A DNA stretch of 64,000 bases from Rhodoferax sp. TH121 (GTDB lineage Bacteria > Pseudomonadota > Gammaproteobacteria > Burkholderiales > Burkholderiaceae_C): assembly GCF_002251855.1 (NCBI RefSeq), contig NZ_NOXW01000018.1:1-64000 (forward strand), given 5' to 3'. Shown here one piece after another: positions 10,801-60,813 of this stretch. The translations under genes were made by a program, and so were the position numbers. Position 1 is the stretch's first letter, and each line of letters opens with the position of its first letter. The notes under the pieces were generated by a model. That model ran no database searches and was not told where the DNA came from. It saw only the letters and a list, made by a program, of their open reading frames with translations.

Positions 10801-11570
10801 TGGCGCGTGCCGTAGTCCCAGCGCACGGCACCGGTGGCCACCAGCAGGTCTTTGGCATTGACGCTGCTATCCAGCTTGAGATTGCGCGTGACCATGTCCA
10901 GCAGAAGCTGGTTGCTGGCATTGAGGCCGGTGCCGTTGACCAGAATGTCGCCCTGGCGTACGTCAAATCCCGCCAGCGATCCGTCCGATCCGAAATTGGG
11001 GGTGCCGGTGGTCAGCGTGATGCGGTCGGTGTTGATGAAACCGCAGCCGGTGCAGGTGATGCCGTACGGGTTGGCAACCACCACGTTGGCGCGGCCGCCC
11101 AGCACCTCGGTAAACCCGGCCAGCACACTGCGGTTATTGCTGACCACTTCGTTGAGGATGACGCTGGCCTCGCTGCCCAGGTTTTTGTTGGCTGCCACCC
11201 AGCCAGCCAGCTGGGACTGGCGCCCGGCCTGGCTGCTGTTGCCGTTGTTGAGCACCAGGCCCTTGGCGTCGACGTTGTACTGCAGGAACTGGTTGTGCGA
11301 GAGCCCGGCCGAATTGGCGCGCGCAATGTCCACCACGGTGACGCCGTTGGGTGCAATGTAGCTGCCGGTGGCACTGTTGGCCGTGACCACCGAGCCATCG
11401 GCCCAAGTCTGGCCTGGGCCGAAGAAGCCCAAGCTGCCCACCAGTGCGGTGGCGGCAAAGCGGGCGCGGCGTGTGTTGCTGGTGCTGCGGGCATGGCCGC
11501 TGCCGTGTTCCGACACGGCAACCCAAGCGTTGCGGCAGCTGTTCCAGACGATGCGGTAGATGTGGTTCAT
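1812..11570 (-). CDS. TpsA: filamentous-haemagglutinin-type adhesin with C-terminal repeat domain
   Basis: This 3252-residue exoprotein is the secreted partner of a two-partner secretion system. The start at 11570 is chosen because the next residues (MNHIYRIVWNSCRNAWVAVS) form an extended signal peptide region as in FHA-type proteins; a hydrophobic core and a cleavage site near residue 57 (QTWA/DG) follow. The TPS domain spans about residues 58-300 and includes NPYGITCTGCGFINT near 166-180. The central 2000 residues are Gly/Ala/Ser/Asn-rich haemagglutinin repeats predicted to form a beta-helix. From about residue 2735, roughly 25 repeats of 17-19 residues (DDAKGSDQAKG plus a Pro/Ala-Arg segment) lead to a Pro-rich tail ending ESAM. 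There is no VENN motif and no recognisable CdiA-type toxin domain, so an adhesin or biofilm role is more likely than contact inhibition. The gene begins 10 bp after tpsB. Confidence 0.92.
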   Translation of the reverse strand: MNHIYRIVWNSCRNAWVAVSEHGSGHARSTSNTRRARFAATALVGSLGFFGPGQTWADGSVVTANSATGSYIAPNGVTVVDIARANSAGLSHNQFLQYNVDAKGLVLNNGNSSQAGRQSQLAGWVAANKNLGSEASVILNEVVSNNRSVLAGFTEVLGGRANVVVANPYGITCTGCGFINTDRITLTTGTPNFGSDGSLAGFDVRQGDILVNGTGLNASNQLLLDMVTRNLKLDSSVNAKDLLVATGAVRWDYGTRQVTGNTTPSGAAPSYAIDTAALGGMYANSIQLIANESGVGVRMRGDAAASSGDFTLTAAGTIELRNSVSAQRDLNVRTSSNASTALSASDSALTAGRDIALEASQGGVALSGGALVASGALALTGQMLSDNASNSAQSNNNLRFAGGALNLNTSGNSSIDGTQWRGVSSVTANLGALAIGNNGAELLSDGNLTLRTQSGNMQLGKAKVGANGDLTLESAGTLRTEADAAQGLISRNGNIDLRAAQAVDNAGSVTAAAGRTRVRSNGLVNSGTMYGASQLDIADANGAASGSFSNSGTLYTGGDLRLRAASASNIANANDPSKGWVQANSASDVQLASLDNSGTWILSSSAGSGDTLTLSGALTNSGTLQSANAATVQANSVDNRGAVLGAAALTLQTDQGLVNRSNARIQSAAALSLDAGSGTLSNESGAVLKGASLRANSNGTLDNKGTLVASSGAATLRSNGLTNSGNIYGASQLDIADANGAASGSFSNSGTLYTDGDLRLRAASASNIANANDPSKGWIQANSASDVQLASLDNSGTWILSNSAGSGDTLTLSGALTNSGTLQSASNATVQAASLENKKLVWAAGNLSLALSSNPASGYGFDNSGKVYSKATLSLNSAGIHMRNQAGSLVAADRLQLENLGNVENAGNIQGGGSANSVISASGTLHNDVGGFITLATASSGRGGLVADTITNDGTIQSLGAMDLTATTRIDNNANANILANGDIRVRGGSANTLAMFYNKSRVESQGTLDVAGYSDSDNITLNIGDGAMNVGQDVTIRSNGFGIEDGGSLAAKRNLTVRSANLLIKGSRSSVLGATGGSGLADIQINNSVTNKGLVFSGNDLNFVATSVTNEITGGFSARNDAQISVVGNINNKGAIWSGHNLLLNAEGMVKNFGTLSGATGTIDADGSIAIEAQRLINNGSIRALGDVSVKAEDISNATADSTFNDAGWDWVYSSTTLLADNNAQWSRTKAYNGAQPYKPQILAGGTVRLFDFVTAINRRAVISANTVRLEGRAGAGATFVNSDVPAPTETYIDDWNHYYHWLNFFAGGQGGAGPDFAMYSAANLGNVHLSSNSGTSATPGVGVFGSNGNSSVIISNVAVTLNSVGSKQAFTVNAGRDGTISSQAPTDNTSQVNGVVGGSSNASGGSVGAASAISFGGINFTLPSNPNGRFVVSPTPNANYLIETNPRYLNAPVNSVSSDYLAQQLGYSPDTILKRLGDAGYEAYLVQQQLVAQTGKELLRGNSSTSEQMKKLMDNAAAQRGSLGLVLGMAPTEAQLNQLQSDMLWMVESTVQGQRVLVPVVYLSAKTRDSVARGVVIEADNLAMKVDSLTNKGGTISGNQTAVIVSKGDIVNLSGTIQGGDVTLVSESGSIVNKTLSSRNGNGTTIGPVASISATKDLALVASDKISVIGAQVNAGGDALLKAGNGVVFDTIEKRSTSSSQSSEKGFLRSKESSTQTTTVEQVQSGLNVGGNLAIVSDKSITLAGTNIQVGKDAVLLAKEDVQIINRTNSTETKTQTKEEGLFVGGGLWGTSTTKSTETVSQNVASNMNVGGSLVAQAGKDITLQGSKLDVAKDAALKAQNIKILAGKEGVETHTETETTSILKIVGGSGSSNSSASGSATGVAARNGASGDVGGSAQAGAQGAGGLAFLSTEKTSTDALSQKNVASALNIGGNAQMVATDKITIQGSSVDAKGSMAVAAKQLELLAGKDIETRTVRSEQTNVGLMASSNNSVAAGAGASGSTGAAGVNGSANASASANSETGIAFVDSTQSRTDSLNIRNSASSLKSGGNLSVQASDKVTLEGSTLAAGGNLALQTKTLDVRTSENISTSTTTTTNTKVGLMANSTNKAEAGAAAQAGAGALLPSASASASAGSSNTLDLLRVQTGTDSSLSTTNNKSQISAGGNMAITATDISVQGSDIAAGGNVDLKAVNMRFSAAADRKETSSTRNTTSAGLYLEASSGANAEAQANAKAGASAEIGMGYQARNVDQSTVSGSSTAVTSSIRAGGDLNRTATGKISDVGTQIAVGGSMTQSASEIESLAARDTSYSSSRTLDNSAKVGMYAGASANAGVSTGAGYDASVGGRVSVSSQTSMASENASKAVTSNITVGKNFSSQSSGSTTLEGTRIQAGGDVDIGAKTLDYKAAQNTQSSSALNVNVGAVVSVNVNAQSVVGGSVSVAADTTVGQASRSTDVAGAIVAGGNTRLKSSGDMTLKGTSIDSAGSTSIDAGGKLSILAAEDKSSSTTHNANASVTLGMSTGGKAGADGSKETGGMFEVAGGYSQSTAQSNTKTAGSIRSGQGTQLRSGADIDLEGTRIQSGGNTVLDAKGNTNLRAATSTASNVSAGVQLGVGLDRKKEDSATQTKTTTKANLSGAVDFALNESSTNEKVSISSGGSSTLRTGGNLLNESASIAGAGGSQLQVGGQTTNKAVKDSNTNVALGIKADVTLSKTTTTEKPQPADPAKGASDSAKGNDPAKGSDDAKGAPAPGDNDDAKGSDQAKGSSPAPRDDDAKGSDQAKGSGAAPRGEDDAKGADLAKGANPAPRDDDAKGSDQAKGSNPAPRGDDDAKGADMAKGSGAAPRGDDDAKGADLAKGATPAPRDDAKGADMAKGSGAAPRSDDDAKGSDQAKGSSPAPRDDAKGADMAKGSNAAPRGDDDAKGSDQAKGSSPAPRDDAKGADMAKGSNAAPRGDDDAKGSDQAKGSSPAPRDDAKGADMAKGSNAAPRGDDDAKGADLAKGSGTAPRGDDDAKGSDQAKGSSPAPRDDAKGADMAKGSNAAPRGDDDAKGSDQAKGATPAPRDDAKGADMAKGSNAAPRGEDGAKGADLAKGSTPAPRDDAKGADLAKGSGTAPRGEDDAKGADLAKGSTPAPRDDAKGADLAKGSGTAPRGDDDAKGSDQAKGANPAPRDDAKGADMAKGSGAAPRGDDEAKGSDQAKGANPAPPSDDGKAAPAGTLNRSTAGADTAKAGPEFVLPLPIPLPPSLPESAM
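1930..3340 (-). repeat. In-frame tandem repeat encoding the TpsA C-terminal domain
   Basis: About 25 units of 51-57 bp encode variants of DDAKG(S/A)D(Q/L/M)AKG followed by (S/A)xxAPR(GD). Two unit types mostly alternate, 'SDQ...PAPR' and 'ADM/ADL...AAPRGD', which suggests a higher-order dimer of about 108 bp. Neighbouring units are nearly identical at DNA level, a sign of recent expansion by slippage or unequal recombination. Several other frames stay open through the block only because the period is a multiple of three. Confidence 0.9.
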
Positions 11571-11580
11571 GGTGCGGTCC

Positions 11581-13302
11581 CTAGATCGAATAGGCAAGGC
11601 GCAGCCAGACACTGGCTGGCTCGCGGGTCATGGTGGAGGGCTGGGCCAGGGCCTGGGTGGCCGAGAGGTCGGCTGAAAGGCCGCGCCAGCGCAGCGAGAC
11701 GCCCAGCGCCATGCCGCTCAGAAAACCGTCGGTGGCGCCGGGTGCGCGGTTGCGCACGGCGCCAAAGTCGTAGCCGACGTACAGACGAGCGGCCAGCGCG
11801 GTGCTGCCGCTTCCCAGGCGCACCGGCGTGGCCAGTTCATTGCGCACGTAGTAGCCGTGGTCGCCGCTGAGCGACTGGGTGGTGAAGCCGCGCACCGAGC
11901 CCAAGCTGCCAATCAACATTTGCTGCGCGCCGTACAGCGTGGTCAGCCCGTACTGGCCATTGAACTGGCTGCTCCAGCTGAAGTCTCGCCCACCCAGGCG
12001 GAAGCTCTGACTGATGGCCAAGTCGGCGCTAAGGCGGCGGAACTGGGCGCGTGGCGCCTCTTCGGCCAAGTCGGCGGCGTCTTTCTGGGCGTCCAGTGCG
12101 TCCAGGCCCTGGGCGTAGGCCAGCTGGCCACTGAGCATGCCGTCGCGCAACACCTGGGAACCGCTGGCGCTGAGGTCCGCATAGGCCAGCGTGCGGCTGC
12201 TGACGGTCAGGCGCTGGCGTTCCAGGAAGTTGTCTGTGGCAGTGCGGGTGAGCCGCGCCGCGGTGCTGGCGCGGCGGGTCTGGTCGCGGTAGACCACGCG
12301 GTCCAGCCCTAGGCTGGTGGTTTCGGTTTCGCCCTCACTGCGCAGGCGGCTGCCGCTGGCGGTGGCGAAGATGTTGAGGTAGCTGGACTTGCTGTAGCTG
12401 GCGGTGACCGCCGCATAGCCCAGCGGCAGCCAGAGTTCGAGCGCATCGTTCTCCGAACGGTGGCCGCTGCGCTCGGGCGTGAAGCTTTCGCGGCGGCTGG
12501 CCACCAGGCGTTCGTTCCAGCCCAGCGGGCTGTCCAGCGTCAGCGAGAGCAGGGCATTGTGGGTGCCAGTGGATTCGCTGCCCTGGTTGTCGGCCGAGAC
12601 CAGCAGGTGGGCCGGGCGTTGTGCCTGGTTGCGCACCACCACCACGCTGGCGCCGGGCTCGCTGCCGGGCTCGATGTCCATGCGGGCATTGTTGGAACCC
12701 AGCCGGTTGATCTGCTCAATGCCCTGCTCGAGGTCGCGCAGGTTCAGCAGCTCACCGGGCGCGCGCGGGAAGGCGTTGGGCAGGCGGATGCCGGCTTCGT
12801 CGCCCTCAATGCGATAGCGCTCGATGCTGCCCTCCAGCACCTGCAGCAACAGGGTGCCGGTCTTGAGATTCTGCGCAGGCAGGTAAACGCGTGTGGTGAC
12901 GTAGCCGCGCTCCAGGTACTGGCGCGTCAGCGCGCCCAGCAGCGCCTCGATGCCAGCCACGCCTAGGCATTGGCCGACAAACGGCGCGGTGACGGCGCGC
13001 ACCTGTTCGGCATCCAGTCGATCGGCACCGATCACCCTGACTTCAGCCACCGGGTGGCAGGTTGCGTCTGTCGCGTTCCCGCTGGCCGGGGGCAGGTAGC
13101 GCTCCAGATTGGCGCCTTCTTGCGGAGGTAGTTCGCGGCGCGCATCGCGCAAGTCCTGCTGCAAGCGTTCCTGCTGCTGGCGCAGGATCGTTTCACTCTG
13201 GCGTGTGCTGGTATCAATGTCGGCGGAGGTCTGCGCCAGCGCGCTCGCTGCCAGGCAGGTGCCGATTAGAAAAATGCCGGATTTCAAAGCCCCGTATCCC
13301 AT
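11581..13302 (-). CDS. TpsB: FhaC/ShlB-type outer-membrane transporter
   Basis: This 573-residue protein exports the adjacent TpsA across the outer membrane. The ATG at 13302 is chosen because it gives a clean signal peptide (GIFLIGTCLAASALAQ, cleavage near residue 24); the frame is open further upstream but encodes nothing plausible. After the signal comes a charged helix (about residues 33-55), two POTRA-like domains (about 70-220), and a 16-strand-type barrel. The conserved VRGF motif, the Omp85-superfamily loop 6 signature, is at about residue 470, and the protein ends in Ile preceded by alternating hydrophobics typical of a last beta strand (VWLRLAYSI). It precedes tpsA by 10 bp in the same operon and is divergent from the large regulator gene. 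Confidence 0.92.
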   Translation of the reverse strand: MGYGALKSGIFLIGTCLAASALAQTSADIDTSTRQSETILRQQQERLQQDLRDARRELPPQEGANLERYLPPASGNATDATCHPVAEVRVIGADRLDAEQVRAVTAPFVGQCLGVAGIEALLGALTRQYLERGYVTTRVYLPAQNLKTGTLLLQVLEGSIERYRIEGDEAGIRLPNAFPRAPGELLNLRDLEQGIEQINRLGSNNARMDIEPGSEPGASVVVVRNQAQRPAHLLVSADNQGSESTGTHNALLSLTLDSPLGWNERLVASRRESFTPERSGHRSENDALELWLPLGYAAVTASYSKSSYLNIFATASGSRLRSEGETETTSLGLDRVVYRDQTRRASTAARLTRTATDNFLERQRLTVSSRTLAYADLSASGSQVLRDGMLSGQLAYAQGLDALDAQKDAADLAEEAPRAQFRRLSADLAISQSFRLGGRDFSWSSQFNGQYGLTTLYGAQQMLIGSLGSVRGFTTQSLSGDHGYYVRNELATPVRLGSGSTALAARLYVGYDFGAVRNRAPGATDGFLSGMALGVSLRWRGLSADLSATQALAQPSTMTREPASVWLRLAYSI

Positions 13303-50971: not shown

Positions 50972-51108
50972 GTGGGTTCCAAACGAGGGGTGGATTTTGG
51001 AACCCATGATAGAAGTGAAAGTGAATAAATGCTCGCCTCGGCTTCGCATCCTCAATCTCTGTGTGGCGAATGCCCCATGGCTGGAGATGAAACTGGTCCC
51101 CCAGCCAA

Positions 51109-52632
51109 TCAAGCCACCCGGAACTGCCCCACGGTTTGTGACAGCGCCACGGCCTGATGGCTCAGTGACTGGGCGGCCGCAAATGCTTCTTCCACCAGTG
51201 CGGCGTTCTGCTGCGTGCCTTGGTCCATCTGCGAAATGGCTTGGTTCACTTGGGCGATGCCTGCGCTCTGTTCATTGCTGGCGGCACTGATTTCGGCCAC
51301 CATGGTGGTGACGCTCTGCACGCCCTGAACCACCTCACGCATGGTGGAGCCCGCTTGTTCCACCAGTTGGGTGCCCACGCCAACCTTGGAGACGGAGTCG
51401 TCGATCAGACCCTTGATCTCTTTGGCTGCTGCCGCGCTGCGCCCGGCCAAGGACCGCACTTCGCTGGCCACTACGGCAAAGCCACGGCCCTGTTCGCCTG
51501 CGCGAGCGGCTTCAACGGCGGCGTTTAGGGCCAGGATGTTGGTCTGGAAAGCAATGCCGTCGATGACGCTGATGATGTCCACAATCTTGCGCGAAGACTC
51601 TTCGATGGAACTCATGGTGCCCACCACCTGCTGCACCACATCACCGCCGCGCACGGCCATCTCCGATGCTGTCCGTGCCAATTCATCGGCCTGCCGTGCA
51701 TTGGCCGCGTTCTGCTGAACCGTGGAGGTGAGCTCCTCCATGGAGGCGGCAGTTTCTTCCAGTGCGCTGGCTTGCGATTCGGTGCGCGATGAGAGGTCGC
51801 TATTGCCTGCAGCGATTTCGGCGGAGGCGGTGTTGATGGAGTCGGTGCTTTCACGCACTTGTTTCACCAGATGCGCCAGGTTGTCGCGCATGGCACGAAT
51901 GGCGTGCAGGATGCTGGAGGTGTCGCCCGGTAGCGTGTTCACCTCCACTGCCAGGTTGCCTTCGGCGATCTGGGTCACCACTTGGGCCGCATATTGGGGT
52001 TCGCCACCCAGTTGCTTCACCAGGGTGCGCAGCATTTGCCAGGCCATTACCACCAGCACCGCCATCAGCGCAGCACTGATGGACAACAAGATGGCCGTGT
52101 TGCGCCAGAAGGCGGTTTGGATGTCGTCCACGTAGTCGCCAAAGCCGATGATCCAGTCCCAGGGCTCGAACTTGATGACGGCGTAGAGCTTGTCCACTGG
52201 CTCTTTGGCACCGGGACGGGTGCCTGGTGCTGTCACCGTGCCGATGGTCTTGCCCTGCAGCGCATCGCGGTAGCGCACGCCCGCTTCCTTGCCGCCCTTT
52301 TCATCGACGATGCCGACCCGCTTGGGGTTGGGGTGCACGTAGTTCACATCATCGGTAAAACCGCGCACGAAGAAGTATTTGTCTTTGTCGACAAAGCTGC
52401 CGATGTTGCGCTTGGCTTCTTTTTGCGCGTCTTCGCGCGAGAGGGCGCCGCTCTTTTCCTGCTCATGGGCCTTTTGCGCCGCCGCATGGGCCAGCAGGAC
52501 CAAGTTGGACAGCTGCGCGGTCCGCTCGTTCATCATCGAGCGGTACAGCGTGGTCAGCGCGACTGCGGAGAGGATGACCAGTCCCAACAGCGTGGCGGCA
52601 CACAGCCAGAGGATGCGGGTCTTGAGTTTCAT
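51109..52632 (-). CDS. Methyl-accepting chemotaxis protein with periplasmic Cache domain
   Basis: This 507-residue chemoreceptor has a transmembrane helix (about residues 8-30), a single-Cache periplasmic domain (about 35-180, with [20 protein letters not shown] near 83-102), a second helix (about 183-205), a HAMP region and a cytoplasmic signalling domain. The hairpin tip sequence [20 protein letters not shown] is intact (about 355-374). The C-terminus ends FRVA with no CheR-tethering pentapeptide. It probably senses small organic acids or similar ligands, but the ligand cannot be named. Confidence 0.92.
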
Positions 52633-52757: not shown

Positions 52758-52872
52758 TCAAGTACCTGCGCGCTCCAACATCGCGTGCAACAACACATTG
52801 CATCCCGCGGTAATGTGCTCCGGCTTGGCGTCCTCAATCTCGTTGTGGCTGATGCCGTCTTTGCAGGCGATG
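52758..52872 (-). pseudogene. 3'-terminal remnant of a ureidopropionase-type hydrolase gene
   Basis: On the minus strand this stretch encodes ACKDGISHNEIEDAKPEH and then ITAGCNVLLHAMLERAGT followed by a stop. It reproduces the last ~36 residues of the complete hydrolase at 59554-60813, except the final residues (AGT versus AKVV). Over the ~102 bp that align (52771-52872 against 59570-59671), about ten bases differ, and within the shared 33 codons every difference is synonymous. The rest of the gene is missing, and the homology stops at the LysR stop codon. The fragment is therefore a relic of a formerly functional, diverged copy rather than a recent duplication. Confidence 0.82.
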
Positions 52873-52876
52873 GAAA

Positions 52877-53785
52877 CTAAGCCATTGCCACCGGCCATGC
52901 CTGCTGCTGCAGGTCCCCCAATAGCCAGCGCGCTCCCAAGCCCAGTGGGCGGAGTCGGTCGTGAATGGCAAAAAGATCAATGGCACGGGGGAGTAAGCCG
53001 GGGTCATTGATGTCCAGTCGTATCAGGCGCCCCGCCTCTAGATGCGGCTCCACCAGGTGCAGCGGCATGGTGCACCAGCCAAAGCCCGCCAACAAAAATT
53101 CCAGGCGTCGTGCAATGTCCACAAAGCGCCAGACGCGCGGGCTGACCACGCTGAAGCTGGGGCCGGGCATCTGAAGTGGATCGGTCAGGATCAGTTGCAC
53201 ATGTTCGGCCAGGATGTCTCGGGTGATGGGACGGGTTTCGGTGGCGAGAGGGTGGTCGGGGGCCACCACGGGTGCAAGGGTGACTTGGGTGAGTGTCGCT
53301 GCCTGCAACTCCTGGATGGTAGATGGCAGCAGGGCGCACAGTCCCAGAATGGCCGAGCCATCGCGCACCCGGCGCTGCGCGGCGCCCATACCTTCCGTGA
53401 AGAGCGTGACGGTCAGGTCCGGGTGCTGCGCCTGTAAACCTGCGAGGCTGCGAATCAGGGGCTGGGTGGGTACAAAGCTGTCCACCGCAATCGATAGCTC
53501 TGGCTCCAGTCCTGCGCTGATGGACTGGGCAGTTCGCTCAAACATGTCCGCTTGGCGCAAGACCTGCCGCGCCTGGGTGACCAACGCCCGTCCGGCCTCG
53601 GTGAACTGTGGTGTGCGCGAGCCACGATCAAACAGTTGCACACCCTGCGTCTCTTCCAGGTTCTGGATGCTGTGGCTGATGGCGGACTGTACCCGCCGTA
53701 GCTTGCGCCCCGCAGCAGAAAAACTGCCTGCTTCGGCAATGGCCACTAGCACGCGAAGTTGGTCCAGAGTCAAGTTGCCAATCAT
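52877..53785 (-). CDS. LysR-family regulator of the DoxX cassette
   Basis: This 302-residue regulator has its helix-turn-helix at about residues 5-62 (AGSFSAAGRKLRRVQSAISHS) and an effector-binding domain after residue 88. It is divergent from the first DoxX gene across a 122-bp gap that contains a 30-bp element also found upstream of the second DoxX gene, which suggests it controls both ends of the cassette. Its stop is directly joined to the hydrolase-gene remnant. Confidence 0.87.
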   Translation of the reverse strand: MIGNLTLDQLRVLVAIAEAGSFSAAGRKLRRVQSAISHSIQNLEETQGVQLFDRGSRTPQFTEAGRALVTQARQVLRQADMFERTAQSISAGLEPELSIAVDSFVPTQPLIRSLAGLQAQHPDLTVTLFTEGMGAAQRRVRDGSAILGLCALLPSTIQELQAATLTQVTLAPVVAPDHPLATETRPITRDILAEHVQLILTDPLQMPGPSFSVVSPRVWRFVDIARRLEFLLAGFGWCTMPLHLVEPHLEAGRLIRLDINDPGLLPRAIDLFAIHDRLRPLGLGARWLLGDLQQQAWPVAMA

Positions 53786-53800
53786 GATGTATCTGTCCGA

Positions 53801-53830
53801 AAGATGGTATTCATCAAAATTTTATCGCTT
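53801..53830. promoter_or_regulatory. Shared DoxX upstream element, copy 1
   Basis: This 30-bp stretch matches the reverse complement of 59477-59506 at 27 of 30 positions, so both copies have the same orientation and nearly the same distance (77 and 83 bp) from their DoxX start codons. It contains GATG-N5-CATC (53803-53815), an inverted repeat suited to a LysR dimer. It starts 15 bp upstream of the LysR gene, which allows autoregulation. Confidence 0.65.
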
Positions 53831-53907
53831 CCGTGAATATGTGCGTGTCTCTACAGTTCCAACTAGGCGTCTATTCATCAGATGCCGCATCTGAAAAGGA
53901 CATGACC

Positions 53908-54327
53908 ATGACAACTTCGACTCACACCTCCTCCCGCCCCGGCAAGATTCTTGGCCCTGCGCTCTGGCTTGTCCAAGCATTGCTGGCCCTCTTCTACATT
54001 TACGCCGGCATCACCAAGCTGAGCACGCCGCCCGCCGAGTTGGCCAAGATGATGCCTTGGACTGCGGCCCTGCCGCAGTTGGTGACCCTTACGGGCATGG
54101 TGGATCTGCTGGGGGGCCTGGGCGTTTTGCTGCCTTCCCTCACCCGCATTCAACCTCGCCTGACCGCGATGGCTGCCTTGGGCACCATCGTCTTGCAGAC
54201 ACTGGCGATGACCTTGCACCTGTCCCGCGGTGAAACCATGGTTGTACCCATGAATTTGGTACTGATCGCCCTGGCCGCCTTTGTGTTTTGGGGTCGTGGC
54301 CGCGCGCTGCCGATTGCCAGCCGCTAA
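53908..54327 (+). CDS. DoxX-family membrane protein 1
   Basis: This 139-residue protein has four predicted helices in the DoxX pattern, with ALFYIYAGITKL (about residues 26-37), MVDLLGGLGVLLP (about 64-76) and TRIQPRLTAMAALG (about 79-92). It aligns without gaps to the second DoxX protein at the other end of the cassette. DoxX-type proteins accompany thiol or quinone stress systems in several bacteria. Of two adjacent ATG codons the second (53908) is chosen because AAAGGA is 7 bp upstream. Confidence 0.85.
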   Translation: MTTSTHTSSRPGKILGPALWLVQALLALFYIYAGITKLSTPPAELAKMMPWTAALPQLVTLTGMVDLLGGLGVLLPSLTRIQPRLTAMAALGTIVLQTLAMTLHLSRGETMVVPMNLVLIALAAFVFWGRGRALPIASR

Positions 54328-54353
54328 GCCCCTTTCTATTTCATTTCAGGATC

Positions 54354-55256
54354 ATGAACATGACCACTTTGCTTGTGACCGGAGCTTCCGGGAAATTCGG
54401 CCTCCGTGTATTGCACCATCTGCTGGAAACCCTGCAAATTGCACCCGAGCGCATCATCGCCACTACTCGCAAGCCTGCGACGCTTAGTGCTTTCGCCCAG
54501 CGGGGTGTGCGTGTGCGGGCTGCAGACTTTGACGAGCCCGCAAGCCTTCCACTTGCGTTTGCGGGTGCGGACCGATTGTTGATCATCAGTACAGACGCCA
54601 TCGGCCAGCCAGGACGCAGACTAGAACAGCATGAGCGCGCAATTGCGGCTGCCGAGCAAGCAGGGGTGCAGCACCTGCTCTATACCTCTTGTCCAGAGCC
54701 AGAGGGTTCGCCCCTGCATATCGCGCCTGACCACGAGGGCACCGAGCAGGCCATACGCGGCAGCAAATTTACCGGCTGGACGCTTCTTCGCAACCATTGG
54801 TACTTTGACAACTTGATGTTCAGTTTGCCTGGGATTGCCGCCCAAGGCGGCAAATGGTTTACCGCTGCGGGCGAGGGCAGGGTGGCAAGCCTGTCGCGCG
54901 ATGACCTGGCGTACGCGGCTGCAGTGGCCTTGGCGTCCCCAGGCGAAACCGGCAAGACCACCTACACCTTGAGTGGCGACGAAGCCCTGAGCACGGCAGA
55001 GCAAGCGGCCATCCTGGCGCGCGAGCTGGGCAAGGCTATCGAAGTGGTGCAGGTGCCGGTGGAAGCCATTGTGCAGGGCATGGTGGGTGCCGGCTTTCCG
55101 GAGCCTGTGGCAACAGCGCTGGCATCGTTCGACACCAACACCGCAGCGGGCCGTGTGGCCACCGTGACCGCGGACTTCCGCCGCCTGACGAATCGCCCTC
55201 CCCGGCGACTGGCGGACTGGGTGAAAACCAACCGCAGCATGCTGCTTGGGAATTGA
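54354..55256 (+). CDS. QorB/NmrA-like NAD(P)-binding reductase
   Basis: This 300-residue protein has the NmrA/QorB fold with the NADP-binding TGASGKFG (about residues 9-16). The LYTSCPEPEGSPLHIAPDH segment (about 111-129) and the WTLLRNHWYFDN segment (about 147-158) are typical of QorB-type quinone reductases. It is likely to reduce quinones with NADPH. CAGGA precedes the ATG, and the gene follows doxX by 26 bp and precedes the dioxygenase by 9 bp. Confidence 0.82.
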   Translation: MNMTTLLVTGASGKFGLRVLHHLLETLQIAPERIIATTRKPATLSAFAQRGVRVRAADFDEPASLPLAFAGADRLLIISTDAIGQPGRRLEQHERAIAAAEQAGVQHLLYTSCPEPEGSPLHIAPDHEGTEQAIRGSKFTGWTLLRNHWYFDNLMFSLPGIAAQGGKWFTAAGEGRVASLSRDDLAYAAAVALASPGETGKTTYTLSGDEALSTAEQAAILARELGKAIEVVQVPVEAIVQGMVGAGFPEPVATALASFDTNTAAGRVATVTADFRRLTNRPPRRLADWVKTNRSMLLGN

Positions 55257-55265
55257 GGAAAGCCC

Positions 55266-56084
55266 ATGACTGAAACACGAATGCCTGCCTTTTTCTTGTG
55301 CCACGGTGGTGGCCCCTGGCCCTGGATGCAAGGTCCTTTGCGCGAGGGTTTGCGCGGGCTTGAGCGAGGCTTACTGGCTGTGCCCGGTCAATTGCCACAG
55401 CGCCCTGACGCGATCGTGGTGGTGTCAGCGCATTGGGAGGCGCGTGCTTTCATGGTCACTTCTGCAGCGGCACCTGGGATGGTGTATGACTATTCGGGCT
55501 TCCCCGCCGAGACGTACAGCATCCGCTATCCGAGTCCCGGGCAGCCCGCGCTCGCGGCGCGGATCGTGGATCTGCTCACTGCAGCCGGCTGCCCAGCCGC
55601 CGCAGACGCCCAACGCGGTTACGACCACAGTACCTACAGCTTGCTCCAAACCATGTATCCGCAAGCCGATATTCCTGTGGTGCAACTTTCTTTGCACGCA
55701 GGGCTGGACCCCGCCCTGCACATCCGGGCCGGGGCAGCATTGGCGCCCCTGCGGGAAGAAAACATCCTCATCATTGGCAGCGGCATGACCTGTCACGAGC
55801 GGGGTCCCGAGATGGCGGCATATTCCGGGCCCTTTGATGATTGGGTACACCGGGTGCTGCAAGACAGCGATCAGCAACGCCGGAAGGATGCCCTCACCCA
55901 CTGGGAGCAAGCGCCATATGCCCGGGCGGTTCACCCCCATGAAGATCATTTCTTGCCCCTGCTGGTGGCGGTAGGCGCAGCCCGTGGAGATACCGCCACC
56001 GCCATCTACCGGGAGCGACTAATGGGCTTTATTGCTTCGTCCAGTTACCGCTTTGGCGAGGCTACCCGGGAGCTGGCGGCATGA
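55266..56084 (+). CDS. DODA-type extradiol ring-opening dioxygenase
   Basis: This 272-residue protein matches the LigB-superfamily DODA/YgiD group. His13 in FFLCHGGGPW, the His of VVSAHWEAR (about 56) and the YDHSTYSLLQTMYP segment (about 119-132) are the expected metal and active-site elements, and the C-terminal half has GSGMTCHERG (about 173-182). Family members cleave catechol rings such as 4,5-DOPA using iron or zinc. Here the substrate is unknown, but the neighbouring quinone-type reductase suggests catechols. The stop overlaps the next start (ATGA). Confidence 0.85.
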   Translation: MTETRMPAFFLCHGGGPWPWMQGPLREGLRGLERGLLAVPGQLPQRPDAIVVVSAHWEARAFMVTSAAAPGMVYDYSGFPAETYSIRYPSPGQPALAARIVDLLTAAGCPAAADAQRGYDHSTYSLLQTMYPQADIPVVQLSLHAGLDPALHIRAGAALAPLREENILIIGSGMTCHERGPEMAAYSGPFDDWVHRVLQDSDQQRRKDALTHWEQAPYARAVHPHEDHFLPLLVAVGAARGDTATAIYRERLMGFIASSSYRFGEATRELAA

Positions 56085-56800
56085 GCGAGCTCACCACCAC
56101 GGAAATGAACGCCAAAGGACCGTTTACGCGTCTGATCACCCGGGTCTTTTTCCGGACCGCACAGGTTTCCGATCACGTGCTGTTGGCCCCCTCGCTGCAC
56201 TACATCACGCTGCAGGGCGAGGCGTTGAAAGGCGTCGCATGGACGGCCGGCGACAAAATCCAGATACGCTTGGGCTCGGGTTTGCAAACCCGCACGTACA
56301 CCCCCATCCAATGGGACCCATTGCAAGGTAGCACCAGCTTTGTGGCGCAGACCTTGTCACCTGGCCCAGGGAGCGACTGGGTCACCGATGCAAAAAACGG
56401 GGCCGTCGTTGAGTTGATGGGCCCTCGCAGCTCACTGGCGCTGGGCGATACTGCAGCCAAGGACGTGATGGTGCTCGGTGATGAGACAGCGTTCGGTTTG
56501 ACCCTTGCTTGGGGTGCGGGTCGCGCGGTGCTTGAGGTGGCCGCCCCTGAGGTTTGGGGACCCCTGTGTCATGCATGGGGCCAGTCTGCTGCGCTGATTG
56601 CCAAACAGGCCGATGACGCTCACTGGTCAAGGATGGAGCAATCGGTGTGGGAGCGCTTTTCGCCGCAGACCCACTTTGTCTTAGCGGGGCGTGCTCGCAC
56701 GATCCAGCATTTTCTAAAGGCGCTCCGTGCCAAGGGGATCAGCGGGGATCGTATTCGAACCAAGGCCTATTGGGCTGATGGCAAAACCGGACTGGATTGA
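56081..56800 (+). CDS. Siderophore-interacting (ViuB-type) flavoprotein
   Basis: This 239-residue protein is a siderophore-interacting FAD-binding protein. The FAD motif RTYTPIQWD (about residues 71-79) is the RxYTxR-like element, followed by the NAD-binding half with DVMVLGDETAFGLTL (about 127-141). Typical members reduce ferric siderophores. Next to a dioxygenase and a quinone reductase it may instead act on catechol-iron complexes (inference). It is coupled to the dioxygenase gene. Confidence 0.82.
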   Translation: MSELTTTEMNAKGPFTRLITRVFFRTAQVSDHVLLAPSLHYITLQGEALKGVAWTAGDKIQIRLGSGLQTRTYTPIQWDPLQGSTSFVAQTLSPGPGSDWVTDAKNGAVVELMGPRSSLALGDTAAKDVMVLGDETAFGLTLAWGAGRAVLEVAAPEVWGPLCHAWGQSAALIAKQADDAHWSRMEQSVWERFSPQTHFVLAGRARTIQHFLKALRAKGISGDRIRTKAYWADGKTGLD

Positions 56801-56808
56801 GCCCGCTC

Positions 56809-57456
56809 TCAGCCCGACACGAGGTAGTTGCGCGCCCGGTCCAGCAACTGCATGTTGATGCTGTGGCCAAGGTTTTCGGCCACGTCGAGTGTTACGCGGC
56901 TCCCTACGGTGTGGAGATTCTGTACGGAGGCGCGAAGCTCTTCCAGCGGAAGCAAGGCATCTTGCGCCCCTGTGAAGAAGTGCAGCGAAGTGCCTGGCAC
57001 CGGTTTGGCAGCTTCGGGCAGCCTGCCTGAAAAGGCCAATACTTTGGCGGCTAAGCGCTCGTGCACACATGCCAGTGCAAGCGCCACACTTGCGCCTTGC
57101 GAGAAGCCGGCCAGCACCGTGTTATGCCACGGCACGCCGGTTTGCATCTGCACTGTGCTGATCCAGGCTGCCATGCGGGGCAATACCGCAGCGATCCGTA
57201 GTTGGCGGTTGTGGGGCGTCATGCCTTGCACGTCAAACCATTGCCTTGCGCCTGTGCTGATACCCGCGGACTCAAAGCCCTGAGGGGCTAAGGTCAGAGT
57301 ACGTGGCTGACAGCCGCCCAACGTGTGCGCGAGCACTTCCATGTCCTCGGCGCGTGCGCCCCAGCCATGCAAAAGTACCAAAAGCATGTCGGGCTTCGGT
57401 TGCGTGTGGCCGCACTGCAAGGTGTGCGGCATCCAGGAGCAAGGTTTCAACATCAT
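56809..57456 (-). CDS. Carboxylesterase/phospholipase-type alpha/beta hydrolase
   Basis: This 215-residue hydrolase has LHGWGARAEDM (about residues 29-39), the nucleophile in GFSQGASVAL (Ser near 117), GAQDALLPL (Asp near 170) and LGHS (His near 201), the full catalytic triad of the acyl-protein-thioesterase/carboxylesterase group. The ATG at 57456 overlaps the stop of the DUF4405-like gene, so the two are coupled. It converges on the siderophore-interacting gene. Confidence 0.83.
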   Translation of the reverse strand: MMLKPCSWMPHTLQCGHTQPKPDMLLVLLHGWGARAEDMEVLAHTLGGCQPRTLTLAPQGFESAGISTGARQWFDVQGMTPHNRQLRIAAVLPRMAAWISTVQMQTGVPWHNTVLAGFSQGASVALALACVHERLAAKVLAFSGRLPEAAKPVPGTSLHFFTGAQDALLPLEELRASVQNLHTVGSRVTLDVAENLGHSINMQLLDRARNYLVSG

Positions 57457-57812
57457 GGCTTGGCTGGGGCACTGCTTTGCTCGAGTTGTTGTGCCGCTTG
57501 GTCTACAGCAGCCGCCTTTGCGGGGTCTTGGGTGTTCAGTATTGCCACTGCGTACACCAGTACCAGAATCACACTCAGCACCGAGCCCGCCCACACTGCC
57601 GAACGATGGCGCGCGTGCGCAATCAGGCCGCGGTAGTTCAGCCTGAGGTGGCTGAGGATGGCCACGATCATCAGCACACCGAACAGCTTGTGCACCGGGT
57701 GCATACGAATAGTGAAAGAAGGCTGGTCAATGATCAACATCAGCACACCCGAGGTGGACATGGCGATGAATGACACCAGCAAGGTGATGGCTGTGAGGGC
57801 TCTGAGATTCAT
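57453..57812 (-). CDS. DUF4405-like small membrane protein
   Basis: This 119-residue protein has three hydrophobic segments and conserved His residues near helix ends (MHPVHKLFGVLMIVAILSHL, about residues 37-56), a pattern like the haem-b four-helix proteins of the DUF4405 group. It may take part in electron transfer at the membrane, which is inference. It lies 45 bp after the Tat-exported hydrolase gene in the same direction. Confidence 0.65.
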   Translation of the reverse strand: MNLRALTAITLLVSFIAMSTSGVLMLIIDQPSFTIRMHPVHKLFGVLMIVAILSHLRLNYRGLIAHARHRSAVWAGSVLSVILVLVYAVAILNTQDPAKAAAVDQAAQQLEQSSAPAKP

Positions 57813-57857
57813 AAGTGGTTCTACAGGGAGTGGACAAAAATGCAGACAGCGGTAACG

Positions 57858-58898
57858 TTAGCCACGAGGTGCAGAATGTGCAGTGGGCGCGCTGTAGTGG
57901 GACAACAAAGTGGTGTGCTGAAGCGGCCAACTCTCCAAGGCTTTATGGTCGGCATCCCACACCGCGCGTAAAAACGCAAGTATCAGGGCCTGGCTGGCTT
58001 GTTTGACCAGAGGGTTGAGCTCAGCGCCACCGCTTCGGTTGCGGTCGGTGAACATGCTGTGGGAACCACCCTCATACACGGCGAGCCACTTCTGGTCGCC
58101 TCCGGTTGCGTGAAAAATCTTCAGTCGGTCTTCGGATCCGCTGAAGTAGCCGGGGATGCGTATGACGTCATCTGTTGCCGTGATGTGCAGGCTAGGAATC
58201 GTTATATGACCCAGAATGGGCTTCAGATCACCTTCGCCATAAAACGGTGGTGCAGAAATCACGATGGCGCCGCAGATACGTTCGTCTGCGAAATCCAAAA
58301 CACCCCCAGCGCGTTGTACTCGGGCACCCGCTGCCAACAGTGTGGTGTTGGCGCCGTAACTGTGCCCTGCGGCGACGATACGCCGGGCGTCGAGTTTCTG
58401 GCCGAGGTCGCTGGCGATCAATGTGTCCAGCGCAAACCGGAGATCGTTCACTCGCTCCAGCGCTTCGCGTTCTTGCGCAGCCTTTTGGAGTCGACCAATC
58501 AAGCCAAGGACGTTACCCTTCCACAAGGTCAGGTCGCTGCCCACATGCTGCAGATGCAGGCTGGCGATACCGTGTCGAGCTAAATGCTGGCCAAACCAAG
58601 AGTAACCCTGGCGTGAGCCCCCAATCCCGTGTGAGAAGACAACCGTTGGCCATGGGTTTCTGGCCTGCTCCCCAGTGTCCGCGTCATAGGTCTTTGGCAG
58701 ATAGAGGCGCACGGGAACCGCGCGTTGGCGTTGTGTATCGAACCAGTCCAGATCGCGTATTTCTACGCCTTGTTCGCTGCTAAACCGCGCAGGCCGAGAG
58801 GCGTCCGCGAAGGCAGCACCCCCCCAGGTGACCAGTGCGAGGGAGGCGCCTTTCTTCAAGAAGTCGCGGCGAACATTTCGTATGGGGTGCCGACTCAT
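57858..58898 (-). CDS. Tat-exported alpha/beta hydrolase
   Basis: This 346-residue protein opens with a twin-arginine signal (VRRDFLKKGASLALVTWGGA, about residues 9-28), so it is exported folded. The catalytic core shows FSHGIGGSRQGYSWFGQHLA (about 88-107) and the nucleophile elbow GHSYGA (about 178-183), with TATDDVIRIP later for the acid and EGGSHSMF for the His. It resembles dienelactone-hydrolase- or lipase-like enzymes. In this cassette it may hydrolyse lactones or esters arising from ring cleavage (inference). Confidence 0.83.
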   Translation of the reverse strand: MSRHPIRNVRRDFLKKGASLALVTWGGAAFADASRPARFSSEQGVEIRDLDWFDTQRQRAVPVRLYLPKTYDADTGEQARNPWPTVVFSHGIGGSRQGYSWFGQHLARHGIASLHLQHVGSDLTLWKGNVLGLIGRLQKAAQEREALERVNDLRFALDTLIASDLGQKLDARRIVAAGHSYGANTTLLAAGARVQRAGGVLDFADERICGAIVISAPPFYGEGDLKPILGHITIPSLHITATDDVIRIPGYFSGSEDRLKIFHATGGDQKWLAVYEGGSHSMFTDRNRSGGAELNPLVKQASQALILAFLRAVWDADHKALESWPLQHTTLLSHYSAPTAHSAPRG

Positions 58899-58973
58899 GG
58901 CGGGAGGTTTGTGGGTTGGATAGACACCGGCGTGGCCGGTGTCGCGTGTTGCTTACGCCCAATGCGGCAATGA

Positions 58974-59393
58974 TCAGCGGGCAGTGATGGGGGCAGCTTT
59001 GCTGCGGCCCCAGTACACAAACGCAGCCAATCCCAACAGGATGACGTTAAAAGGGGTAGCGGGCCATTCGCCGCGGGAACCGTGGAAAGCGAAAGCCAGA
59101 ACTTGCAAGACGATGATGCCCAGAGCGGCCAGCACCGTCAAACGAGGCTGAATCCGGGTAAGTGCGGGCAACAGGATGCCCAAGCCACCCAGCAGATCAA
59201 CAATGCCTGTGAATGTTTTTAAAGCGGGGTACTGGGCTGCCCACACCATCATCTTGGCGACTTCGTCCGCCGGCGCCGCGAGTTTCATGTAAGCACCAAA
59301 CAAAAGAAAGAAGGCCAGTACAAGCTGAGCCGCCCACAGCCCGACGCCCAGCAGGCGTCGAGGTGATGCGGTAGGAATAGTGGTGGTGTTCAT
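58974..59393 (-). CDS. DoxX-family membrane protein 2
   Basis: This 139-residue protein aligns without gaps to the DoxX protein at 53908 (same length, IVDLLGGLGILLPALTRIQP shared with one or two changes), so the two are paralogues. Four helices are predicted. GGAGA lies before the ATG at 59393. It faces outward at the right edge of the cassette, and its upstream region carries the same 30-bp element as the first gene. Confidence 0.86.
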   Translation of the reverse strand: MNTTTIPTASPRRLLGVGLWAAQLVLAFFLLFGAYMKLAAPADEVAKMMVWAAQYPALKTFTGIVDLLGGLGILLPALTRIQPRLTVLAALGIIVLQVLAFAFHGSRGEWPATPFNVILLGLAAFVYWGRSKAAPITAR

Positions 59394-59476
59394 AACAATC
59401 TCCAGATCAAAATAAAGGGTGATCTGTCGCAACAACAGACCTACCCTGAACGATAGAGATCGCAATGAATCTTGAG

Positions 59477-59518
59477 AAGCGATTAAATTTTGATGAAAAC
59501 CATCTATATTTAAGATGG
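59477..59518. promoter_or_regulatory. Shared DoxX upstream element, copy 2, with adjoining palindrome
   Basis: Bases 59477-59506 match the element at 53801-53830 (27 of 30, inverted), in the same position relative to the DoxX gene. Directly beside it CCATCT (59500-59505) and AGATGG (59513-59518) form a 6-bp inverted repeat with a 7-bp AT spacer that the first copy lacks. The sequences further downstream towards the two DoxX starts also resemble each other, suggesting duplicated promoters. Confidence 0.65.
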
Positions 59519-59553
59519 CTTGGTGTCAAATGCGTCTCTTCATTGGCCGAAAC

Positions 59554-60813
59554 TCAAACCACTTTCGCCCGCTCCAACATCGCATGCAGCAACACATTGC
59601 ACCCGGCGGTGATGTGCTCGGGCTTGGCGTCTTCAATCTCGTTGTGGCTGATGCCGTCCTTGCAGGGGATGAAGATCATGCCGCTAGGCGCTAGCTTGGC
59701 CATGTAGACCGCGTCGTGGCCGGCGCCTGAGACGGCGGGCATGTGGCTGTAGCCCAGGTTTTTGGCGGCTCGACCCACAGCGTCCACGCAGTCGTCGTGA
59801 AAGGCAATCGCCGAGTAGCTGGACACCATTTCAATCTTCACGTCCACGCCATGCTCTTGCGCTACTTTGGCGGCGAAGGCTTTCACCTCGTCGGCCATCT
59901 GGTCTACCAGCGCGTCGGTGCTGTTGCGCAGGTCGATGCTGAACTTCACGCGGCCCGGAATCACGTTACGGCTGTTGGGGAACACCTGCACCATGCCCAC
60001 GGTGCCGCGGCCATGCGGCGGGTGGCGGTGGGCGGCGGCCACCACGTCTTGCATGATGCGCGTGGCGGCCAGCATGGCGTCCTTGCGCAGGCCCATGGGC
60101 GTGGGGCCGGCGTGGGCTTCCATGCCGGTCACGGTGCAGTCAAACCAGCGAATACCCAGCACGCCGCTGACCACACCGATGGTCACGTCGTTGTCTTCCA
60201 GCACCGGGCCTTGTTCGATGTGCGTTTCAAAATACGCTCCGATGGGGTGGTCGCCAGGTTCCTGGTCGCCGATGTAGCCGATGCGCTCCAGCTCGCCCTT
60301 CACGCTCTTGCCTTCGGTGTCGGTGGCGGCATAGGCATGTTCCAGCGTGAAGGCTTTGGCAAACACGCCCGAGCCCATCATCACGGGCACAAAGCGCGAG
60401 CCCTCTTCGTTGGTCCAGAAGGCCACTTCGATGGGCGCTTCGGTTTCAATGCCCAGGTCGTTCAGCGTGCGCACCACCTCAATGCCCGCCAACACGCCGT
60501 AGTTGCCATCGAATTTGCCGCCAGTGGGCTGGGTGTCGATGTGGCTGCCGGTCATGATGGGGGGCAAGCTGTTGTTGCGGCCCGCGCGGCGCATGAAGCC
60601 GTTGCCGATCTTGTCGATGGTGACGGTCATGCCGGCGTCGCGCGCCCAGCCCAGCACCAGGTCACGGCCCTGCTTGTCCAGGTCGGTTAGCGTCAGGCGG
60701 CAGACGCCGCCCTTGGGTGTGGCGCCAATCTTGGCCAGCTCCATGAGCGAGGCCCAGAGGCGGTCGCCGTTGATGCGGACTTTGGAGATGTCGATATCGG
60801 TTGCGGTGCTCAT
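59554..60813 (-). CDS. N-carbamoyl-beta-alanine/L-amino-acid hydrolase (ureidopropionase type)
   Basis: This 419-residue metalloenzyme belongs to the M20-like amidase group (HyuC/AmaB). Metal and active-site residues appear in TGSHIDTQPTGGKFDG (His91, Asp102), TNEEGSRF (Glu136-137), HIEQGPVLE, and SGAGHDA near the C-terminus. Next to dihydropyrimidinase and the PreTA dehydrogenase, the expected reaction is N-carbamoyl-beta-alanine to beta-alanine, CO2 and ammonia. It is the last gene of the pyrimidine operon. Its 3' end also exists as a remnant at 52758-52872 beyond the DoxX cassette. Confidence 0.9.
   Translation of the reverse strand: MSTATDIDISKVRINGDRLWASLMELAKIGATPKGGVCRLTLTDLDKQGRDLVLGWARDAGMTVTIDKIGNGFMRRAGRNNSLPPIMTGSHIDTQPTGGKFDGNYGVLAGIEVVRTLNDLGIETEAPIEVAFWTNEEGSRFVPVMMGSGVFAKAFTLEHAYAATDTEGKSVKGELERIGYIGDQEPGDHPIGAYFETHIEQGPVLEDNDVTIGVVSGVLGIRWFDCTVTGMEAHAGPTPMGLRKDAMLAATRIMQDVVAAAHRHPPHGRGTVGMVQVFPNSRNVIPGRVKFSIDLRNSTDALVDQMADEVKAFAAKVAQEHGVDVKIEMVSSYSAIAFHDDCVDAVGRAAKNLGYSHMPAVSGAGHDAVYMAKLAPSGMIFIPCKDGISHNEIEDAKPEHITAGCNVLLHAMLERAKVV

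What the first reader, a model, noticed from the sequence alone, without database searches (positions are those of the whole stretch)
52758..59671. Accessory cassette flanked by a direct repeat of the hydrolase gene's 3' end
The 3' end of the pyrimidine-pathway hydrolase occurs complete at 59554 and as a 39-codon relic at 52758, in the same orientation. Between them lie nine genes unrelated to pyrimidine breakdown. In the aligned 102 bp about ten bases differ, yet all differences within the shared 33 codons are synonymous. So the relic diverged while under selection; it is not a fresh target duplication. The simplest reading is that the cassette arrived with, or recombined through, a related hydrolase gene from another lineage, leaving only its tail.
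Basis: partly seen in the sequence, partly recalled or inferred. Interest (0 to 1): 0.75.

Follow-up and report, generated by a model that had tools for sequence, protein, structure and literature searches.

The report
Stranded gene tails from serial insertions
Behind one predicted pyrimidine-breakdown gene of a Rhodoferax-like bacterium lie two leftover copies of that gene's own tail, and the same pattern, mostly with other cargo genes, recurs in relatives; each leftover is most likely the gene's former end, pushed aside when new genes arrived, probably by ordinary recombination, so the row of tails would be a readable record of past gene gains.

Summary
The repeat is real. The relic (52758) matches the hydrolase (HYD) 3' end with 10 synonymous and no non-synonymous differences in 33 codons. 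A second, decayed tail at 51029-51097, beyond the chemoreceptor gene, was missed.

Tail-only relics lie behind intact HYD in 6 of 83 distinct loci holding at least 5 kb downstream (not a random sample), in two genera, mostly around different cargo. Profiles of the other HYD segments add no tail-only relic, and the 3' ends of four neighbouring genes are never doubled.

Flanks tell which tail is old. In a genus-mate with a variant of the cassette, relic plus next ~300 bp is 93-95% identical to the intact HYD end of three relatives. In the window the relic sits before the chemoreceptor as intact HYD does in Acidovorax-type loci. The window's HYD is a mosaic (breakpoint near nt 520).

Best reading: rhs-like tail displacement by homologous recombination on a housekeeping gene. 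No tyrosine or serine recombinase lies nearby in seven genomes checked. The joining mechanism is inferred.

The parts
59554..60813 (-). Intact hydrolase HYD (hydantoinase/carbamoylase family amidase, M20 peptidase fold), behind PreA and dihydropyrimidinase-like genes in an apparent operon; ends ERA-KVV-stop; the parts before and after nt ~520 have different relatives
   Evidence: mosaic
52758..52876 (-). Relic 1: tail of HYD, ends ERA-GT-stop; homology begins at the LysR stop codon; lies before the chemoreceptor
51029..51097 (-). Relic 2: decayed HYD tail fragment between chemoreceptor stop and the GST gene
   Evidence: counterpart nearly complete in L144
51109..52632 (-). Methyl-accepting chemotaxis protein (sCache_2, MCPsignal), bounded on both sides by HYD tails here and in L144
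50114..50971 (-). GST-family gene; relatives' start puts it at about 50971 (my reading), the ORF list runs on to 51112; shortly behind HYD in G217 and G399
52877..53785 (-). LysR-family regulator, cassette end next to relic 1
53833..54327 (+). DoxX_2-family membrane protein 1
54354..55256 (+). NmrA-like NAD(P)-binding protein
55266..56084 (+). LigB-type extradiol dioxygenase (4,5-DOPA dioxygenase-like, below the NCBIfam cut-off)
56081..56800 (+). Siderophore-interacting-protein-like FAD-binding protein
56809..57594 (-). Phospholipase/carboxylesterase-family hydrolase (the true start is probably internal)
57453..57812 (-). DUF4405 protein
57858..58898 (-). PAF-acetylhydrolase-like alpha/beta hydrolase
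58974..59465 (-). DoxX_2-family membrane protein 2, cassette end next to HYD

Best explanation
The relic at 52758 is most likely the former 3' end of the hydrolase gene, left standing next to its old neighbour, the chemoreceptor, when a new 3' end and the nine-gene cassette entered from a related strain, probably by homologous recombination inside the gene. Shown: intact gene and relics in one orientation; relics in three other loci carry the downstream sequence that follows intact HYD in other strains; the window's HYD is mosaic; the pattern is specific to the HYD 3' end among the genes tested and recurs with different cargo; no tyrosine or serine recombinase lies near. Inferred: (1) a donor strand pairs with HYD and brings the donor's tail and what follows it; (2) its far end is joined about 100-160 bp before the resident stop codon, at the border where homology ends (homology-facilitated illegitimate recombination), so the resident tail and its neighbours are pushed downstream while HYD stays intact; (3) once cargo is bounded by two tails, plain homologous recombination can carry it into any strain with an intact HYD, linear by two crossovers or as a circle by one; (4) repetition gives strata, newest next to HYD: here cassette, then chemoreceptor, then GST-adenosine deaminase.
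For: Tail-only relics behind intact HYD: window x2, L144 x2, L153, L160, L142, L143. Old flanks: L143 relic + ~300 bp matches intact HYD ends of L009/L146/L148 at 93-95% over 406-415 bp; L144 relic B + following ~130 bp matches intact ends of L146, L165, L009, L151, L145 and others (76-84%); L153 relic + start of the ATPase gene matches L138 (74% over 345 bp), where that gene follows intact HYD. New side: L153 intact HYD + Bmp-type ABC transporter is contiguous in L107, L039, L167, L055, L103, L065 and others. Simple sites HYD-GST-adenosine deaminase: L136 (a 124-aa ORF between), L152. Mosaic: HYD nt 1-510 puts the window with L116/L150/L156/L144 (support 0.949), nt 530-1257 with L146/L009/L145/L137 (0.955); best splits at 518-546 for L150 or L144 against L137, L145 or L146 reach 0 of 2000 permutations, L008 against L137 or L009 0 of 5000. 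Specificity: nine other HYD segments; 0 of 80, 55, 14 and 10 loci with a second 3' end for dihydropyrimidinase, PreA, GST and adenosine deaminase; 8 of 129 for HYD. No tyrosine or serine recombinase near HYD in 7 genomes; G000, G404 and G400 have no serine recombinase match at all. ComEC and DprA domains in 6 of 7 genomes, the seventh being 76% complete.
Against: Window and L143 cassettes differ more (fourfold sites 0.42-0.63) than their HYD 3' parts (0.24; tail 0.14; 5' part 0.36), so cassette and present HYD 3' part did not arrive together from one recent L143-like donor, unless HYD was later homogenised or is slow at silent sites. The mosaic therefore shows recombination in HYD, not that this was the cassette's entry. 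A strict three-against-three site test found only 16 sites, 15 of them of the L009 group, and no split (1289 of 5000); some pairs put the split elsewhere (L066/L136 at 233-251; L116/L137 at 611). L144, L143 and L153 show no significant breakpoint (105, 103 and 175 of 2000, L153 with another reference 772), though the L153 tree position shifts when the tail is added; L010 shifts too. Relic starts are tighter than random illegitimate joints would give. The last codons (KVV/GVV/GT) vary within clades, so they are weak lineage markers.
Confidence: 0.62

Rival explanations
1. Site-specific integration: an unseen recombinase uses a site in the HYD 3' end; each element carries a replacement tail, and the original tail is left at the far side (as recalled for phage 21 in icd and SCC at orfX).
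For: Relic starts cluster 104-163 nt before the end in 7 of 8 tail-only relics, the eighth being eroded; the gene is kept intact each time; different cargo at one site; L153 may change lineage only in its last part (tree; the split test is not significant).
Against: No recombinase domain among the cassette and module proteins scanned (short ORFs not scanned); no tyrosine or serine recombinase near HYD in 7 genomes (the G427 contig holds only 7.7 kb); starts are spread over 59 nt among the uneroded relics; cargo is in part the ordinary neighbour of HYD in other lineages (chemoreceptor, Bmp-type transporter); the window's breakpoint lies near nt 520, far upstream of the tail.
Confidence: 0.15
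2. Tandem duplication of HYD inside one lineage, cargo insertion between the copies, then decay of one copy down to its tail.
For: L017 (Acidovorax facilis) has a second HYD 3' part 93% identical about 10 kb upstream of its intact HYD (the locus begins inside it), L118 has a second copy with an internal deletion, and L126/L041 an internal HYD-like piece 7.5 kb downstream.
Against: Tail-only relics (8 in 6 loci) outnumber long or internal second copies (3 loci); relics in L143, L144 and L153 carry flanks that match intact HYD ends of other strains; relic and intact tails end differently in window, L144 and L153.
Confidence: 0.12
3. The relic is kept for a function of its own, as a small protein or as a transcription or regulatory signal.
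For: 33 codons without amino-acid change.
Against: Relic 2 is decayed, the L142 relic has a one-base deletion and the L160 relic an internal gap; synonymous divergence is explained by selection before the tail was cut off.
Confidence: 0.03

Closest known systems
C-terminal displacement in rhs loci (Jackson et al. 2009, PMC2935791, passages read)
   Same: An intact gene followed in the same direction by dissociated 3' pieces with short upstream homology of varying length; new ends displace old ones, which are shunted downstream; homologous recombination proposed, with a circular intermediate.
   Different: rhs tips differ in sequence from one another and are themselves the payload. Here the tail protein is unchanged over 33 codons, the gene is a catabolic enzyme, and the payload is the unrelated genes behind it.
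Sequential displacement of T6SS effector modules in Vibrio cholerae (Kirchberger et al. 2017, PMC5361080, passages read)
   Same: Serial insertion at one end, older modules left as an array; homology-facilitated illegitimate recombination suggested.
   Different: There the retained parts are immunity genes thought to be useful; here the marker is a dead tail and the cargo is metabolic, sensory or transport genes.
Minimal mobile elements of Neisseria (Saunders and Snyder 2002, recalled; only mentions and the reference in PMC1538595 seen)
   Same: Alternative cargo between conserved genes (recalled definition).
   Different: As recalled, exchange uses two flanking genes; here one gene would give both anchors and leaves a countable tail at each event.
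Homology-facilitated illegitimate recombination (Amarir-Bouhram et al. 2011, PMC3240628, abstract read)
   Same: One homologous and one illegitimate joint would give the first capture.
   Different: The abstract reports it at a very low frequency in E. coli conjugation and names three competent species; here a natural, repeated result at one gene end is proposed.
Integrase-driven islands in gene 3' ends (recalled)
   Same: Gene end restored, old end displaced.
   Different: No tyrosine or serine recombinase found near.

Membership tests
rhs-type C-terminal displacement | Array of dissociated 3' pieces behind an intact gene, same orientation | tested here: met
   8 tail-only relics in 6 loci, all same strand; two relics in a row in window and L144
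rhs-type C-terminal displacement | Displaced pieces keep their former downstream sequence | tested here: met
   (L143, L144, L153); for the window by gene order only
rhs-type C-terminal displacement | Gene is rhs or another polymorphic toxin gene | tested here: not met
   hydantoinase/carbamoylase family amidase
rhs-type C-terminal displacement | Alternative C-terminal domains | tested here: not met
   tail protein identical over 33 codons
rhs-type C-terminal displacement | Circular intermediate | not testable with these tools
   proposed, not shown, in PMC2935791; needs reads or PCR
Integrase-driven island in a gene 3' end | Recombinase encoded in or beside the element | tested here: not met
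   Searches (proteins scanned, short ORFs not; tyrosine type; serine type) in 7 genomes; a lost or distant recombinase is not excluded
Integrase-driven island in a gene 3' end | Direct repeats restoring the gene end | tested here: met
Integrase-driven island in a gene 3' end | One fixed crossover point | tested here: inconclusive
   starts clustered but spread over 59 nt, one eroded
Homology-facilitated illegitimate recombination | Homologous joint on one side | tested here: inconclusive
   the window's HYD is mosaic, but one search does not tie that crossover to the cassette's entry
Homology-facilitated illegitimate recombination | Non-homologous joint on the other side | tested here: inconclusive
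   LysR stop abuts relic 1; the joint could also be tail-to-tail homologous
Minimal mobile element | Different cargo between conserved neighbours | tested here: met
   HYD on one side, GST or adenosine deaminase on the other in several genus-mates
Minimal mobile element | Exchange by crossovers in two flanking genes | not tested
   only HYD-side recombination was examined

The most novel reading that the evidence does not exclude
A housekeeping gene end acts as an integrase-free landing pad: its ~100-160 bp tail repeats let cargo modules enter, stack and leave by RecA alone, and the stranded tails are a stratified record of gene gains that can be read across a whole bacterial family.
Probability: 0.4. 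Interest if true: 0.72.

Novelty: new variant of a known kind. Interest (0 to 1): 0.52.

Why it matters
How new genes enter a hotspot that carries no integrase, without breaking the neighbouring gene, is hard to see after the fact. Here each entry appears to leave a marker, the stranded tail, so the order of entries, the former neighbour and in some loci the donor type can be read from sequence. The same scan (a profile of a gene's last ~126 nt against its own downstream region) could be run on every core gene to find other such sites.

Tried and rejected
Fresh target-site duplication: rejected, about 10% divergence that is wholly synonymous in 33 codons. Chance match for relic 2: score alone is not decisive (a 29-bp C20 piece has equal bits); accepted because of position and the L144 counterpart. 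L126/L041 second HYD piece (7.5 kb downstream): only an internal part, no gene end, not counted as a tail relic. L138 hit of 14.7 bits: taken as chance, it lies inside an unrelated-looking ORF. G194 partial copies end at contig ends; not used. Last-codon type (KVV/GVV/GT) as a lineage marker: given up as sole evidence. Tail-only nearest neighbours (102 nt) were too short to decide polarity (relic: best 93 matches, window tail 91). Strict three-against-three site test: uninformative. Cassette origin: the SIP-like protein occurs in 12 of 399 family genomes, own included; two of six fetched loci pair a LysR of 80-82% identity with DoxX and SIP-like genes elsewhere (L183, L185), and no HYD was seen in those six stretches. 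In 103 genus genomes an NmrA relative at E <= 1e-30 was found in 8, own included, elsewhere than HYD. Paper searches for a print report of this locus or of displaced housekeeping tails gave nothing relevant in that library; a further one did not run.

Mended after re-checking: serine recombinases were searched and further cargo proteins scanned; the first rival's odds went from 0.17 to 0.15 for that reason; the membership row on the homologous joint was changed to inconclusive.

Sampling note: 129 distinct HYD ends come from 166 loci. The named ones are the best 80 kept of a capped scan; some genomes (such as G311, G121, G300, G194) were fetched because their hit tables showed extra or short matches, so 6 of 83 is not an unbiased frequency.
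Full report
WHAT IS THERE. The window lies in a Rhodoferax-like genus of the Comamonadaceae: HYD places in genus-mates coincide in contig coordinates with named loci of Rhodoferax sp. TS-BS-61-7 (L008/G410, L150), R. bucti (L010/G401), Comamonadaceae bacterium OS-4 (L009/G428) and Curvibacter sp. GWA2_63_95 (L066/G406). HYD (59554-60813, minus) follows a dihydropyrimidinase-like gene and PreA-like gene in an apparent operon and is a hydantoinase/carbamoylase family amidase; its role in pyrimidine breakdown is predicted from this. The relic at 52758 is its tail: 33 codons, 10 synonymous differences, none that changes an amino acid. Between the two lie nine genes: LysR, DoxX, NmrA, LigB-type dioxygenase, SIP-like flavoprotein, carboxylesterase, DUF4405, PAF-AH-like hydrolase, DoxX. 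Beyond the relic come the chemoreceptor, a second decayed tail (51029-51097), GST and adenosine deaminase.

THE PATTERN RECURS. I collapsed 166 loci with an intact HYD 3' end to 129 distinct ones, of which 83 hold at least 5 kb downstream. A tail profile finds extra same-strand hits downstream in 8 of the 83; no hit of 20 bits or more lies on the other strand in the 129. Six of the 8 are tail-only: window (2 relics), L144 (2), L153, L160 (the same contig as L012), L142 and L143; five of these genomes are of the window's genus, L142 of another. The other two are L118 (a long second copy with an internal deletion) and L126 (an internal piece). Controls: profiles of the other nine 126-nt HYD segments find only L118, L017, L126 and one edge hit of the L142 relic; 3' ends of dihydropyrimidinase, PreA, GST and adenosine deaminase are never doubled (0 of 80, 55, 14, 10 loci), while HYD's is in 8 of 129 (the six tail-only loci, L118 and L017). 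The chemoreceptor end is multiple only in L144 (1 of 15), which holds other chemoreceptor genes.

WHICH TAIL IS OLD. L143 (G427), with HYD 99% identical over residues 67-419, holds a variant of the cassette: seven of the nine genes at 67-95% protein identity, MipA in place of NmrA and DoxX1. Its relic with the next ~300 bp aligns at 93-95% over 406-415 bp to L009, L146 and L148, where the same stretch is the end of intact HYD; in L009 a gene with a GGDEF domain follows. So there the relic is the resident tail. L144 reads HYD - solute-binding protein and chemoreceptor, both reversed - tail - chemoreceptor (92% to the window's) - nearly full tail - other genes; the last tail with the next ~130 bp matches intact HYD ends of several relatives at 76-84%. 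L153 reads HYD - Bmp-type ABC transporter (binding protein, ATPase, two permeases) - tail - AAA ATPase; HYD-transporter is contiguous in many other loci, and HYD-ATPase in L138. L142 reads HYD - 609-aa protein without a Pfam match - tail - reversed adenosine deaminase. In the window, tail-chemoreceptor has the order of intact HYD-chemoreceptor in L013, L020, L082, L093/L128, with L078 and L079 near-cases, and by eye a decayed chemoreceptor end follows HYD in L066. Simple sites HYD-GST-adenosine deaminase are L136 (with a 124-aa DMT_6 gene between) and L152.

RECOMBINATION IN HYD. In trees from an alignment of 122 HYD genes (those long enough for each part), the window's nt 1-510 group with L116, L150, L156, L144 (0.949) and nt 530-1257 with L146, L009, L145, L137 (0.955); the L137/L009/L145/L146 group stays together in both, while L010 and L153 shift as well, so recombination in HYD is not rare. 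Best split: L150 against L137 at 518-527, 13 of 56 then 57 of 73 sites, z 6.2, 0 of 2000 permutations; L150 against L145 and L146 agree, L144 against L137 gives 518-546, L116 against L137 611. L066 against L136 splits at 233-251. Against: a strict three-against-three test had 16 sites, 15 of them of the L009 group, and no signal, and L143, L144 and L153 show no significant split. The cassettes of window and L143 differ at 0.42-0.63 of fourfold sites, their HYD 3' parts at 0.24, tails at 0.14 and 5' parts at 0.36. So the cassette and the present HYD 3' part need not share one event; HYD may have been overwritten later.

MECHANISM. Relics begin 104-163 nt before the end of the coding part in seven cases (L142, L144 B, L153, both window relics, L144 A, L143) and at 65 nt in L160, whose relic has an internal gap (400-column model). 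In window and L143 the LysR stop lies within a few bases of the tail; behind the chemoreceptor the gap is also short in window and L144, by eye. No recombinase domain was found in the cassette or module proteins scanned (short ORFs were not scanned). Tyrosine recombinases of the seven genomes lie on other contigs or at least ~160 kb from HYD; serine recombinases occur in four of the seven and lie on other contigs or more than 1 Mb away, with none at all in G000, G404 and G400. For fragmented G427 the contig shows only 7.7 kb. Transposases were not searched. ComEC and DprA domains are in six of seven, which permits transformation but proves nothing. I commit to displacement by homologous recombination through HYD, the first joint of each cargo being illegitimate at the border of homology, later moves being tail-to-tail. 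The tight start range is the best argument for the rival, a site-specific recombinase not seen here.

KNOWN KIND. Jackson et al. 2009 (PMC2935791, passages) describe rhs genes whose ends are displaced by incoming ends and kept downstream in arrays, and propose homologous recombination with circles. Kirchberger et al. 2017 (PMC5361080, passages) describe serial displacement of T6SS effectors and name homology-facilitated illegitimate recombination. The architecture is the same; gene class and payload differ. I found no report for this gene in the searches made (listings), which cover open-licence papers only.

VERDICT. Observation confirmed and extended; interpretation half right. A new variant of a known kind, of moderate interest, with a testable general claim.

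Noticed in passing
window 53802-53831 and 59476-59505: 30-nt inverted repeat (93%) in front of the two DoxX genes at both cassette ends, with similar copies in L143: likely a shared LysR operator that would put both ends under one regulator.
   Followed up: partly
window 53833-54327 and 58974-59465: The two DoxX genes share an inverted stretch (74% over 144 nt), one at each end of the cassette.
   Followed up: no
L137:1764-11406: Type I restriction-modification genes (HsdR, HsdM by Pfam) with further genes lie between HYD and GST in genus-mate G349: the HYD end is also a site for defence cargo.
   Followed up: partly
L142:1666-3495, L041:12073-15531, L066:1437-3683 and 3686-4867, L010:11414-12712, L008:11480-12691: Cargo proteins of 609, 1152, 748, 393, 432 and 403 aa behind HYD without any Pfam match at E 0.001.
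   Followed up: no
L017:2-538 and 10001-11248: Acidovorax facilis has a second HYD 3' part (93% identical) about 10 kb upstream of the intact HYD, with a histidine kinase, an M81/MlrC-type gene and, by eye, regulator and transporter ORFs between.
   Followed up: partly
L118:6950-11690: G121 has a second HYD copy with an internal deletion behind a lipase-like gene and a lipase chaperone.
   Followed up: partly
window 50972-51112: The GST open reading frame as listed runs through relic 2; relatives indicate a start near 50971.
   Followed up: partly
window 1812-11612: A 3266-aa open frame on the minus strand opposite many plus-strand frames; not examined.
   Followed up: no
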